Part shown: positions 16,789 through 33,283 of the stretch, piece after piece
How positions within the stretch are numbered: the first letter of the stretch is position 1
How the letters are laid out: the number at the start of each line of letters is the position of its first letter
Origin: Lachnospiraceae bacterium
GTDB lineage: Bacteria > Bacillota > Clostridia > Lachnospirales > Lachnospiraceae
NCBI GenBank assembly: GCA_017392525.1
Contig: JAFOVD010000026.1
Span: 1 to 47,000 of the forward strand
Direction of reading: 5' to 3'
DNA: 47,000 bases
Translations under genes and position numbers: made by a program
Notes under the pieces: model-generated
Told to the model about the DNA's origin: nothing
Database searches by the model: none
The model's input: the letters and a program-made list of their open reading frames with translations, nothing else

Positions 16789-16907
16789 CCACACCACGCA
16801 ACACGTCCCACACCACGCAGCTCGTCCCACACCACACAGCTCGTCCCACACCACATGGCTCGTTCCACACCACGCAACACGTTCCACACCACACAGCTCG
16901 TCCCACA
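16789..16907. repeat. 19-bp tandem repeat, six units
   Basis: Units begin at 16789, 16808, 16827, 16846, 16865 and 16884, with consensus CCACACCACGCAGCTCGTC, then a 5-base partial. Variants alternate GCAACACGT and ACAGCTCGT. 19 is not a multiple of 3, so it is unlikely to code. Confidence 0.9.
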
Positions 16908-18403: not shown

Positions 18404-18525
18404 CACTGCAAATCCGCAGCTATAAATTCGTTGCTCACTGCAAATCCGCGGCTGCAAAACCATTGCTTACCGCAAATCCGCGGCTGCAAAAACCATTGCT
18501 CACTGCAAATCCGCGACCGCAGCAG
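18404..18525. repeat. 32-33-bp tandem repeat between ispE and gntR
   Basis: The core CTGCAAATCCGC recurs at 18406, 18438, 18470 (CCGC variant) and 18503, each followed by GGCTGC/AGCT and an A-rich, ATTGCT spacer. The CCGCGG palindrome sits in the two inner copies. It occupies most of the 200-bp gap between two co-directional genes. Confidence 0.85.
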
Positions 18526-28763: not shown

Positions 28764-28827
28764 GGATTCACATTTCTTGTCACAACATGTAGCAATTGGA
28801 TCCTTTCAGCTACACTATATATATCGA

Positions 28828-29766
28828 CTATGAAGCAGAAATGTTAACCCTTTTTTTCATTTTTACCAATAACTTTATTCCAACATAGGTTGCTACGATT
28901 CCGGCAAGCAGGATAAAGAATGACATCACCGGTGCCATTGTTCCTGTAGTCGCCACTTCAGCCGCTTCTGTAGAAGCATTGTCCCATGGAATATATGACA
29001 GTCCTGTTGTGGTTGAATTGTAGACCATGTGAAGAACCATGGTAACGATAATATTTCCAGTCTTGAGATAAACATAGCCCAGACCGAGTCCGATTACAAA
29101 TGCGTAGCAGGCCTGCATCGGATTCATATGCATCACGCCAAAGATGATGGCCTGGATAATGCAGGTTCCCCAGAAGCCAAAACCACGGCGCAAATACTCT
29201 GTACTAAGACCTCTAAATCCCAGTTCCTCCACCATAGGTCCGATGATGCAGACATAGATCAGAGTAAGGGGCGTCATATCTGTAAGTCCTGCCGCTTCCT
29301 CCAGCTGCATCAGTTCTGCCAGCCACATTGGAAATAACACTGCCAGGGCTGACATCATATACTGCACCACAATCAACATTCCTACTGCAAAGAGAATCAC
29401 ACCGACAACGAATTTCACCGGGTTGTATCCACGAAATGATACATTTGGCTCCGGAAATCTCATATCGATAAATCCGTTACGATTATATTTCTTACTGCTC
29501 TTCTTGTAGAAATGCTGATAGTAGTACACGCCAAACACAATCAATGCCACTACTTCATAGATCAGATAGGTACCATTCAAAATGACATTAACCACATCCT
29601 GACCTTTCAACCCATCTAAAAACTCCTGCATTGTGATTCCATGGAAATGATACACATACAGTCCGACTGCAATCTGACTCATGAAAATCGATGCAGCCAC
29701 CTGAATCACTTCAATTAATACAAAAGGTAATAATGCAAATACTATTGCTTTGATTTTACGACTCAT
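28828..29766 (-). CDS. CPBP-family intramembrane metalloprotease (CAAX/Abi)
   Basis: 312 residues, about eight membrane helices. The three CPBP motifs are intact: E180-E181-x3-R185 (EELGFRG), F209-x3-H213 (FGVMH) and H246-x3-N250 (HMVYN), which form the metal site in the membrane. Known relatives include CAAX prenyl proteases, bacteriocin-immunity proteins and regulators of membrane-protein cleavage. The start ATGA overlaps the patatin stop by 4 bases, so translation is coupled to the lipase gene. The substrate is unknown. An extracytoplasmic loop of about 35 residues follows the first helix. Confidence 0.92.
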   Translation of the reverse strand: MSRKIKAIVFALLPFVLIEVIQVAASIFMSQIAVGLYVYHFHGITMQEFLDGLKGQDVVNVILNGTYLIYEVVALIVFGVYYYQHFYKKSSKKYNRNGFIDMRFPEPNVSFRGYNPVKFVVGVILFAVGMLIVVQYMMSALAVLFPMWLAELMQLEEAAGLTDMTPLTLIYVCIIGPMVEELGFRGLSTEYLRRGFGFWGTCIIQAIIFGVMHMNPMQACYAFVIGLGLGYVYLKTGNIIVTMVLHMVYNSTTTGLSYIPWDNASTEAAEVATTGTMAPVMSFFILLAGIVATYVGIKLLVKMKKRVNISAS

Positions 29767-30693: not shown

Positions 30694-31161
30694 TTATAAG
30701 AAGATAGTCACGCCCAGTAAGCTGACGGTCATCATAATTGTACCCGCCATAAGTACTCCCAGCATTGCTGCAAGTACGGTTGATTTAAAATCCATATCCA
30801 GAATAGAAGCTGCCAGTGTACCTGTCCATGCTCCTGTTCCAGGAATCGGAATACCTACAAAGAGCATCAAAGCCACGAAAACACCTCTTCCGGCCTTGGA
30901 TGTCAACTTCTTGCCACCCTTTTCACCCTTCTCTAAACAGAAAGTGAAAAACTTTCCAATTACCGGCTTATCCTTGCCCCACTCCAATACCTTTCTTGCG
31001 AAAAGATAAATGATTGGGACCGGCAACATATTTCCAATCATACAGATTAGAAATGATGGCACTACCGGCAAATGATAGTATGCCTGCGAAATAGGAATCG
31101 CCCCACGAAGCTCAACAAGCGGTACCATAGACCACAGAAACACAATTAAATATTCTCTCAT
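30694..31161 (-). CDS. Small multidrug-export-type membrane protein (COG2426)
   Basis: The start is set at ATG 31159-31161 (MREYLIVFLWSMVPLVELRGAIPIS), with AAGGAAAA about 10 bases before; 155 residues. It has about four membrane segments, with the conserved VELRGAIPIS near the N-terminus, GNMLPVPIIYLFARKVLEW and the re-entrant-looking FVGIPIPGTGAWTGTLAASIL. This matches the 'putative small multidrug export protein' family; substrates are not proven for the group. It is the first gene of the unit with patatin and CPBP, with its own extended -10 upstream. Confidence 0.85.
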   Translation of the reverse strand: MREYLIVFLWSMVPLVELRGAIPISQAYYHLPVVPSFLICMIGNMLPVPIIYLFARKVLEWGKDKPVIGKFFTFCLEKGEKGGKKLTSKAGRGVFVALMLFVGIPIPGTGAWTGTLAASILDMDFKSTVLAAMLGVLMAGTIMMTVSLLGVTIFL

Positions 31162-31198
31162 ACAATCTATTTTCCTTTCATAATTACAAAACACTCAC

Positions 31199-31207
31199 AT
31201 TATAACA
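31199..31207 (-). promoter_or_regulatory. Extended -10 promoter of the small exporter gene
   Basis: Minus strand TGTTATAAT with TATAAT at 31199-31204. It places the start about 30 bases before the ATG, so the hairpins further upstream at 31.34-31.42 kb are not part of this leader. Confidence 0.6.
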
Positions 31208-31257
31208 CAATATGGCAAAAACTGTTTTTTGATAATGTTCACAGATTCTTAATACTT

Positions 31258-31286
31258 TTTACAAATTATGAACATATTCCCTTGTT
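31258..31286 (+). promoter_or_regulatory. Promoter for an intergenic RNA
   Basis: TTTACA (31258-31263), 17-base spacer, TATAAC (31281-31286) on the plus strand. No plus-strand protein gene follows; the unit ends at the terminator at 31447-31483. Confidence 0.6.
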
Positions 31287-31292
31287 ATAGTA

Positions 31293-31485
31293 TAACCATC
31301 CTGAAGGAAACAACAGGATAACGTTTCAATCGTTGTACATAGGAAGAGATTTAACCCTCCCCCTCATTTGAAATCTCTTCCTTGGAAATATCCCTCTCCC
31401 TCAACCCGGGATATTTCCTAAATCCCTCAAAATGAAATCTGTAGCAAAGAAAAAGAACCAGCAGCCAGCTGGTTCTTTTTCTTAT
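31293..31485 (+). ncRNA. Candidate small RNA with two C-rich hairpin loops
   Basis: From the predicted start near 31293 to the terminator is about 190 bases without a reading frame of note. Two perfect 11-bp hairpins lie side by side: GGAAGAGATTT/AAATCTCTTCC (31342-31352 with 31371-31381, 18-base loop) and GGAAATATCCC/GGGATATTTCC (31384-31394 with 31408-31418, 13-base loop). Both loops are C-rich (CCCTCCCCCTC; TCTCCCTCAACCC), and a third CCCTCAA lies unpaired at 31424-31430. Such C-rich exposed motifs pair with Shine-Dalgarno sequences in known Gram-positive RNAs such as RsaE. The unit is convergent with the HD-domain gene. I know no family for it. Confidence 0.6.
31447..31483. terminator. 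Bidirectional terminator between the RNA unit and the HD gene
   Basis: A perfect 16-bp stem AAGAAAAAGAACCAGC (31447-31462) with its complement (31468-31483), loop AGCCA. The U-rich arm lies on the 3' side on either strand, so it can end the plus-strand RNA and the minus-strand HD gene. Confidence 0.88.
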
Positions 31486-31545
31486 ATATACACATCCTCT
31501 ATTTCAACTTCGCAGCGCAGGTGACCGCATAATACCCTGCAGCCA

Positions 31546-32217
31546 CTATGCAATTGCGTTACGAAGATTGTTTATCAGTTTAACCTCATCTACATCCTTG
31601 AGATTCTCCACTTCCTGAAGCTGTTCCCCGGTAAGCCCCGCAAGAATAGAACACACACGAACACGCTCCCTGATAATCGGAATCTGAACATGTGCAACCG
31701 CATCGGCAACCTCAAGAATCATAAGATTCTGGAAGACTTCCTTCCCCACAAGATCCAGATGCGTATTCACCATCTTCTGCGAAAGTTTCATGCGTTCATC
31801 ATGGTAGTAAACATAGTAGTAGAAACGTCTATGCTCCGCCTCTGTGTAACGCATTCCATGAGACTCCAGTTCCGGCAAAATATGCTTTAACAAAATCTCT
31901 GCACTCCGTTCCGGATGATTCGGATAATGCATATGGCGCTCGCCCTCTACCCGATCTGGCACCTGGCAATCCGGCTTGCCGATATCGTGAACCAGTGCCG
32001 CCAAGTAAAGCATATCATCATCAAGATTTCGTGGAAGTCCAATCGCTACATGAAGACAATGCTTCCAGAGATCGTACTGATGCGCCGCATTCTTCTGATC
32101 AAAATCGAACATAACCCGAATAGAAGGCATCAATTCTGCAATCTCTTCTCGTCTCGCATCCAGGACATCAATATTCTGTTCCGTTTTCAATAAATGAATA
32201 AGCTCTGCATATTTCAT
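31546..32217 (-). CDS. HD-domain phosphohydrolase
   Basis: 223 residues. The HD fold begins with HQYDLWKHCLHV (H53, H56) and the metal-binding LAALVHDIGKP (H77-D78), followed by a mid-domain H (HMHYPNHPERSAEIL), YYVYYHDE and a late D in EVADAVAHVQ. The layout resembles the HD part of tRNA nucleotidyltransferases and small nucleotide phosphohydrolases. The substrate is unknown. No ribosome site is clear before the ATG at 32215-32217, so expression may be low or the start elsewhere. The terminator 60 bp downstream is shared with the convergent small RNA. Confidence 0.88.
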   Translation of the reverse strand: MKYAELIHLLKTEQNIDVLDARREEIAELMPSIRVMFDFDQKNAAHQYDLWKHCLHVAIGLPRNLDDDMLYLAALVHDIGKPDCQVPDRVEGERHMHYPNHPERSAEILLKHILPELESHGMRYTEAEHRRFYYYVYYHDERMKLSQKMVNTHLDLVGKEVFQNLMILEVADAVAHVQIPIIRERVRVCSILAGLTGEQLQEVENLKDVDEVKLINNLRNAIA

Positions 32218-32703: not shown

Positions 32704-32776
32704 TGAGACACGGGGGATTTGAACCCCCGACAACCTGATTAAAAGTCAGGTGCTCTACCAACTGAGCTAGTATCCC
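32704..32776 (-). tRNA. tRNA-Lys (UUU)
   Basis: 73 bases read on the minus strand. Anticodon loop CTTTTAA gives anticodon TTT. Acceptor GGGATAC pairs with GTGTCTC (two G-U pairs), discriminator A; T-loop TTCGAAT. CCA is not encoded. Last tRNA of the cluster. Confidence 0.95.
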
Positions 32777-32792
32777 ATAATATCGCGGAAAA

Positions 32793-32864
32793 CTGGGCTA
32801 GTTGGATTCGAACCAACGAATGCAGGAATCAAAATCCTGTGCCTTACCGCTTGGCGATAGCCCA
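32793..32864 (-). tRNA. tRNA-Gln (UUG)
   Basis: 72 bases. Anticodon loop TTTTGAT gives TTG. It begins TGGGCTATCGCC, the usual U1-start of bacterial tRNA-Gln, with a complete TGGGCTA/TAGCCCA acceptor stem. Confidence 0.95.
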
Positions 32865-32909
32865 TCAATGATCTATCTCTGGACCACTGTATTGTTGCTA
32901 TCGCAACAG

Positions 32910-32984
32910 GGTGGATAGAGGGATTCGAACCCTCGGCCTCCAGAGCCACAATCTGGCGCGCTAACCAACTGCGCTATACCCACC
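32910..32984 (-). tRNA. tRNA-His (GUG)
   Basis: Anticodon loop TTGTGGC gives GTG. Acceptor GTGGGTA/TATCCAC with the extra 5' G (opposite the discriminator C) that marks tRNA-His, encoded at 32984. Confidence 0.95.
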
Positions 32985-33019
32985 GTATAGGCGATAAATC
33001 GCAGTGATTTATCGCAAAA

Positions 33020-33093
<74 letters not shown>

Positions 33094-33097
33094 ATAA

Positions 33098-33168
33098 AGC
33101 GGGTGATGAGAATCGAACTCACGTGTCCAGCTTGGAAGGCTGGCGTTCTACCATTGAACTACACCCGC
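33098..33168 (-). tRNA. tRNA-Gly (UCC)
   Basis: 71 bases. Anticodon loop CTTCCAA gives TCC. Acceptor GCGGGTG/CACCCGC, discriminator T. It is separated from tRNA-Arg by only 4 bases. Confidence 0.95.
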
Positions 33169-33208
33169 ATTTTATGAAATATTCAATTGTTGATGATTAC
33201 TCATCAAG

Positions 33209-33283
33209 TCGGGGTGACAGGATTCGAACCTGCGACCCCCTGGTCCCAAACCAGGTGCTCTAGCCAAGCTGAGCCACACCCCG
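33209..33283 (-). tRNA. tRNA-Pro (UGG)
   Basis: 75 bases. Anticodon loop TTTGGGA gives TGG. Acceptor CGGGGTG/CACCCCG, discriminator A. First tRNA of the cluster. Confidence 0.95.

What the first reader, a model, noticed from the sequence alone, without database searches (positions are those of the whole stretch)
31293..31485. Candidate anti-Shine-Dalgarno small RNA with twin C-rich hairpins
A plus-strand promoter (TTTACA-17-TATAAC) is followed by two perfect 11-bp hairpins with C-rich loops, an unpaired CCCTCAA and a strong terminator. It is about 190 nt with no gene. Exposed C-rich motifs that pair with GGAGG are the hallmark of known regulators such as RsaE. The minus-strand promoter of the neighbouring gene lies between this unit and that gene, so it is not that gene's leader. 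CCCTCCCCCTC could also pair with GAGGGGGA in the RBS of the 269-aa gene at 16.08 kb.
Basis: partly seen in the sequence, partly recalled or inferred. Interest (0 to 1): 0.72.

Follow-up and report, generated by a model that had tools for sequence, protein, structure and literature searches.

The report
Stress-linked small RNA for secreted-protein genes
This stretch most likely encodes a small regulatory RNA, one of a group found in gut and rumen Lachnospiraceae, that shares its control box with the stress protease gene htrA and may slow the making of secreted proteins.

Summary
The unit is real and most likely a small RNA. Two stem-loops with C-rich loops, a free CCCUCAA and a terminator lie at 31298-31484 (z -7.65). 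A second copy lies elsewhere in the genome; a congener has both; stems stay paired while loops persist. Conserved instead are 11-bp phased TTCACA-like units, 9 nt, then TATAGTATAACCATC. This promoter precedes other C-rich sRNAs: 15 of 22 scanned records. A matrix from sRNA promoters alone ranked htrA first of 579 control genes and put 12 of 16 examined htrA genes in the top 0.2%. So: a likely envelope/secretion-stress regulon of htrA plus anti-Shine-Dalgarno sRNAs. GGGAG-type Shine-Dalgarno sites are enriched in secreted genes of the genus (22/69 vs 55/468), but clearly only in the first half sampled. It works like streptococcal csRNAs and Listeria LhrC, with a different box; the window and 20 further loci have no Rfam sRNA match. 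Expression, regulator and targets are untested.

The parts
31238..31276 (+). 11-bp phased box: TTCACA (31238), TTAATA (31249), TACAAA (31260), AACATA (31271)
   Evidence: Read by eye; the last two units are in the matrix; same geometry at other sRNA and htrA promoters. The congener copy keeps all four units (L063).
31283..31291 (+). extended -10 TG-T-TATAGT, 9 nt after the last box unit
   Evidence: TATAGTATAACCATC shared with sRNAs of other genera
31298..31319 (+). predicted start A31298 and 5' hairpin ATCCTG/CAGGAT; element nearly invariant in the 4 genus copies
   Evidence: the start site is inferred, not mapped; the single-sequence fold of the window copy prefers another pairing here
31341..31382 (+). 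hairpin 1, loop AACCCTCCCCCTCATTTG
   Evidence: arms rewritten but paired in paralogues, loop core kept
31384..31418 (+). hairpin 2, loop TCTCCCTCAACCC
   Evidence: all 44 cells paired, 3 pairs changed on both sides
31419..31434 (+). single-stranded third C-rich site with CCCTCAA
   Evidence: CCCTCAAAA invariant in the 4 copies
31447..31483 (+). terminator-like hairpin, symmetric enough to serve the minus-strand HD gene too
   Evidence: self-match on the minus strand; not listed by the rule-based scan

Best explanation
The locus encodes a ~187-nt trans-acting sRNA. An OmpR-type response regulator that also controls the htrA protease gene binds the 11-bp phased box and activates a promoter without a usual -35 (inferred). 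The RNA folds into two stem-loops that present C-rich loops, plus one single-stranded C-rich site. These pair with G-rich Shine-Dalgarno sequences (GGGAG, AGGGA, GGGGGAG) and block ribosome binding (inferred). Targets are biased to exported proteins, so the RNA would lower secretory load while HtrA clears misfolded exported protein (inferred). Shown by computation: RNA-like conservation, a paralogue, a box shared with htrA, and a moderate pairing bias towards secreted genes. Not shown: transcription, regulator binding, repression.
For: Fold z -7.65. Paralogue 73% identical; both copies in the congener, the window copy between the same two genes. Hairpin 2: 44 of 44 cells paired, covariation 0.409, reached by 1 of 500 shuffles; hairpin 1 arms replaced yet 11/11 paired in the window and both paralogues. 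Genome-collection scan: 15 of 22 records (17 sites) are largely non-coding C-rich or CU-rich units. Promoter pattern in 50 of 397 family genomes, 57 places against 10 for the reversed control. The matrix from 21 sRNA promoters ranks htrA first of 579 controls; 12 of 16 examined htrA loci at <=0.0017, 13 at <=0.0052, own genome included. Two further htrA genes, in two other genomes, came up unasked among 30 loci read from the sRNA promoter pattern. GGGAG/AGGGA in 22/69 secreted vs 55/468 cytosolic genes of G001, p 6e-5; canonical Shine-Dalgarno no difference.
Against: No expression data. Three of 16 htrA loci lack a strong site (0.019, 0.026, 0.94). Two of 4 genus genomes (77 and 83% complete) show no copy. 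With all genus members left out of the matrix, the window promoter scores 15.5 but the paralogues only 5.6. Covariation rests on 4 sequences in two lineages; the count of pairs changed on both sides (3) is no higher than in shuffles (308 of 500); the orthologue's hairpin 1 has 9 of 11 pairs. The GGGAG bias is clear in the first 400 kb (15/41 vs 20/212, p 4e-5) but not in the second (7/28 vs 35/256, p 0.16). Pairing bias is modest (AUC 0.617-0.635) and the paralogue loops are not clearly better than shuffles (34 and 8 of 60). The response regulator is a guess: a box lies before 5 of 13 orthologues, two of them weak. The window RNA lacks the UUUUCAU core found in 14 of the 17 sites.
Confidence: 0.63

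Rival explanations
1. A genuine C-rich sRNA of the general RsaE/FsrA type, under a phased-box regulator that is not the htrA regulator, and without bias to the secretome.
For: C-rich loops would fit many G-rich Shine-Dalgarno sequences; the genus boxes are among the more diverged of the set; the secretome bias is weak in the second half of the sample.
Against: The same box geometry before htrA in 11 of 14 sRNA genomes and before two more htrA genes found without asking.
Confidence: 0.23
2. The functional RNA is the minus strand, with G-rich GAGGG loops that could bind a CsrA-like protein or act as a leader.
For: The minus strand also folds (z -5.79); G-rich loops.
Against: Promoter, predicted start and 5' element are conserved on the plus strand, the promoter also in other genera; plus-strand z is stronger; the neighbour's own promoter lies beyond the unit.
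Confidence: 0.05
3. An inert inverted-repeat element or terminator array without regulatory function.
For: Several inverted repeats side by side; copies in two places.
Against: Only two copies found in each of G000 and G001, loops kept while arms change and stay paired, promoter conservation.
Confidence: 0.05

Closest known systems
Streptococcal csRNAs (CiaRH regulon; PMC3091779 and PMC8186281, passages seen)
   Same: Intergenic, 51-202 nt, several per genome, terminator-ended; activator direct repeats with N5 about 10 nt before the -10; a C just before the start; anti-Shine-Dalgarno (and in most relatives here anti-AUG) sequence; htrA in the same regulon (PMC12826053, passages).
   Different: Box TTCACA-like, not NTTAAG/TTTAAG; other host family; the candidate regulator has another recognition helix; the window copy has three C-rich sites and no anti-AUG in the right order before them.
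Listeria LhrC1-5 (LisR regulon; PMC4132741, passages)
   Same: Multicopy, controlled by a two-component regulator, envelope stress, three redundant CUCCC sites in loops and a single strand; Shine-Dalgarno blocking.
   Different: LisR-responsive element lies above -53; no sequence relation was tested.
RsaE/RoxS, FsrA (recalled; RsaE and FsrA named as UCCC users in a passage)
   Same: C-rich anti-Shine-Dalgarno principle.
   Different: No Rfam sRNA match for the window unit.

Membership tests
csRNA (CiaR-dependent) | NTTAAG-N5-TTTAAG box | tested here: not met
   Units are TTCACA-like; N5 spacing and the distance to the -10 (9 nt here, 10 there) are alike
csRNA (CiaR-dependent) | CiaR with recognition helix VVEVYVSKVRKKL | tested here: inconclusive
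   The candidate regulator L092 reads RTIDTHVKKLRSKM there (by eye); that it is the regulator is itself unproven
csRNA (CiaR-dependent) | several intergenic terminator-ended copies per genome | tested here: met
csRNA (CiaR-dependent) | anti-SD plus anti-AUG unpaired | tested here: inconclusive
   14 of 17 relative sites carry UUUUCAU; the window copy has anti-SD only
csRNA (CiaR-dependent) | htrA in the same regulon | tested here: met
   by promoter sequence only
LhrC | three CU-rich sites in loops and single strand | tested here: met
   binding itself not tested
LhrC | LisR dependence | not testable with these tools
   no binding or expression data
RsaE | match to an Rfam model at gathering score | tested here: not met
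   no sRNA family at gathering score; only chance-level hits

The most novel reading that the evidence does not exclude
Lachnospiraceae possess their own secretion-stress regulon in which one OmpR-type regulator induces HtrA together with a rapidly diversifying set of sRNAs that act as a collective brake on the secretome. They address exported-protein mRNAs by generic marks of their start regions: GGGAG-type Shine-Dalgarno sequences in the window's genus, and Shine-Dalgarno plus AUGAAAA (Met-Lys signal-peptide starts) in most others.
Probability: 0.36. Interest if true: 0.75.

Novelty: new variant of a known kind. Interest (0 to 1): 0.55.

Why it matters
Lachnospiraceae are major members of gut and rumen communities and secrete many degradative enzymes (general knowledge). 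An htrA-coupled sRNA brake would be their counterpart of the csRNA and LhrC circuits, and gives a simple promoter signature for finding such sRNAs. It also makes a testable proposal: sRNAs can address a whole functional class of mRNAs through shared start-region features rather than gene-specific seeds.

Tried and rejected
PhoP/phosphate control was considered because TTHAYA repeats resemble PhoP boxes (recalled); PstS reached the search threshold in 1 of 5 genomes and the family cut-off in none, so it was dropped. A palindromic operator GTTATAGTATAAC was dropped because relatives break the palindrome. A 5' pseudoknot (GGAAAC with GTTTC) looks sterically tight and is unresolved. The motif GTTATAGTATAACCATC alone is only weakly enriched: 26 places against 15 for the reversed pattern. 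Two alignments took the wrong stretch or strand and were not used; one search failed on my pattern and was redone. A second response regulator near another HtrA-like gene shows no box before it (second group). No covariance model was built. Literature searches for the class (listings only) showed no Lachnospiraceae csRNA-like family; one search returned no paper.

Results against: control genome G343 shows the ATGAAAA bias too (12/37 vs 16/244), so that bias is general and no sign of co-evolution; G343 had no match to the sRNA promoter pattern. One E. oxidoreducens C-rich loop was no better than shuffles (22/60). Of the 22 scan records, 7 are chance hits. Of 57 places I could read 30 loci; I judge 15 sRNA-like (4 of them known before: window, G001, G106, G037), 2 htrA, 1 doubtful (L269) and 12 other (partly by eye, and the automatic terminator test failed for 7 of the 15). 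Box matches in five genomes: 25 against 10 for the reversed pattern.

Full report
What is there. The + strand at 31298-31484 folds into two stem-loops with C-rich loops, a free CCCTCAA and a terminator-like hairpin. The fold is far more stable than shuffled sequence (z -7.65, 0 of 200). The minus strand also folds (z -5.79). At gathering scores Rfam finds only six tRNAs in the window, and a permissive scan of 31100-31600 gives only chance-level hits, best E 0.29.

The promoter. Reading back from the conserved TATAGT at 31286-31291, units lie at 31271 (AACATA), 31260 (TACAAA), 31249 (TTAATA) and 31238 (TTCACA), each 11 bp apart, with 9 nt between the last unit and the -10. The congener copy keeps all four. 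The predicted start is A31298.

Family. A paralogue lies at G000:C20 (73% identity); the congener G001 has both copies. Of the 4 genomes of the genus 2 have a match; the other two are incomplete. The G001 orthologue sits between the same two genes. Hairpin arms differ between paralogues yet pair: hairpin 2 has all 44 cells paired, 3 pairs changed on both sides, covariation 0.409 with 1 of 500 shuffles as high; the number of both-side pairs alone is not above shuffles (308 of 500) and only 4 sequences exist. Hairpin 1 arms are 11/11 paired in the window and both paralogues, 9/11 in the orthologue. The C-rich loops and the 5' element stay. The body is not found in other genera by BLAST: 3 of 299 genomes matched, the own genome and two that share only the 5' piece.

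A wider class. That 5' piece led further. A scan of genome contigs for WCAYA-N9-TATARTATAACCATC gave 22 records. Fifteen, with 17 sites, are non-coding (one partly overlapped by an ORF) with C-rich or CU-rich sequence, and are labelled Lachnospiraceae, Eubacterium or unassigned bacterium; seven are chance, six of them overlapped by ORFs. Fourteen of the 17 carry UUUUCAU, usually followed by CUCC-type sequence; in the clearest cases this is the reverse complement of a Shine-Dalgarno sequence followed by AUGAAAA. With 2 mismatches, CACA-N9-TATAGTATAACCATC occurs in 50 of 397 family genomes, 57 places against 10 for the reversed pattern. Of the 30 loci I could read I count 15 sRNA-like, 11 of them new, and 2 htrA genes. 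Twenty loci gave no Rfam match at gathering score other than tRNA.

Link to htrA. A box search in five genomes (25 sites against 10 for the reversed pattern) turned up an htrA gene in two of them and an OmpR-type regulator gene in one. I then fetched HtrA homologues in 14 sRNA-bearing genomes and examined 16 of 27 matches, leaving out 11 weaker or shorter ones. A matrix built only from 21 sRNA promoters was scored against the 330 nt before each gene. Among 579 control genes the top one was htrA itself. Twelve of 16 htrA loci lay at <=0.0017, one at 0.0052, two at 0.019 and 0.026, one (a divergent paralogue) at 0.94. By genome, 11 of 14 have a strong site, 2 (G400, G402) only weak ones, and G406 was not examined. 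An open scan of about 800 kb each of G001 and G106 put sRNAs and htrA at or near the top, with 4 and 8 hits against 2 and 3 in reversed sequence, and 4 against 3 in G343; the sRNA hits there are partly training data.

Regulator. The OmpR-type regulator with a box before it in G037 has close orthologues (65-71% identity) in 12 of the other 13 genomes. Within 260 nt a box is visible before 5 of the 13, two of them weak, and not before 8. Identity of the regulator is therefore a guess.

Targets. With a crude gene finder and a hydrophobicity rule for exported proteins, GGGAG/AGGGA Shine-Dalgarno sequences in G001 occur in 22 of 69 secreted against 55 of 468 cytosolic genes (p 6e-5), with no difference for AGGAG/GGAGG (33/69 vs 203/468). 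Split by half, the bias is 15/41 vs 20/212 (p 4e-5) and 7/28 vs 35/256 (p 0.16), so it needs a whole-genome test. In G106 ATGAAAA starts 16 of 75 secreted against 14 of 475 cytosolic genes, significant in both halves. In control genome G343 the ATGAAAA bias is present but the GGGAG bias is not (4/37 vs 19/244, p 0.52). The E. oxidoreducens core pairs better with secreted start regions (AUC 0.645, 0 of 60 shuffles as high). Window-type segments give AUC 0.617-0.635, reached by 2, 1 and 0 of 60 shuffles, while two paralogue loops were not clearly better than shuffles (34 and 8 of 60) and the canonical anti-Shine-Dalgarno does not discriminate (0.55 and 0.53).

Comparison. Streptococcal csRNAs match in architecture, promoter geometry, anti-start-region sequence and htrA linkage, but the CiaR repeat is absent. 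LhrC matches in three redundant CU-rich sites and envelope-stress control. So this works like both and is filed under neither. What is shown is comparative; transcription, binding and repression remain to be tested.

Noticed in passing
window 28814-28845, minus strand: A second box-like site (AACATT-N5-TTCATA-N9-TATAGT, 19.3 bits) is followed within about 100 nt by a long terminator-like hairpin; no C-rich loops, may be chance or a short transcript.
   Followed up: partly
window 32704-33283, minus strand: Cluster of six tRNA genes upstream of the HD-domain gene.
   Followed up: no
window about 16825-16875 and about 18445-18495: Short repeated units (CACACCACA.. and GCAGCCGCGG..) seen in start regions printed.
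   Followed up: no
L010 and L019/L049 (G106:C9), downstream of two sRNA copies: Repeated units like TTGGGGAGCCAGGC follow the sRNA terminators.
   Followed up: no
G153:C13, G404:C219, G405:C168, G406:C153, G402:C32, G106:C22: Another HtrA-like protease lies about 2-4 kb from another OmpR-type regulator gene, a possible CssRS-like cluster; no box before the regulator gene in the five examined; the protease promoters were not examined.
   Followed up: partly
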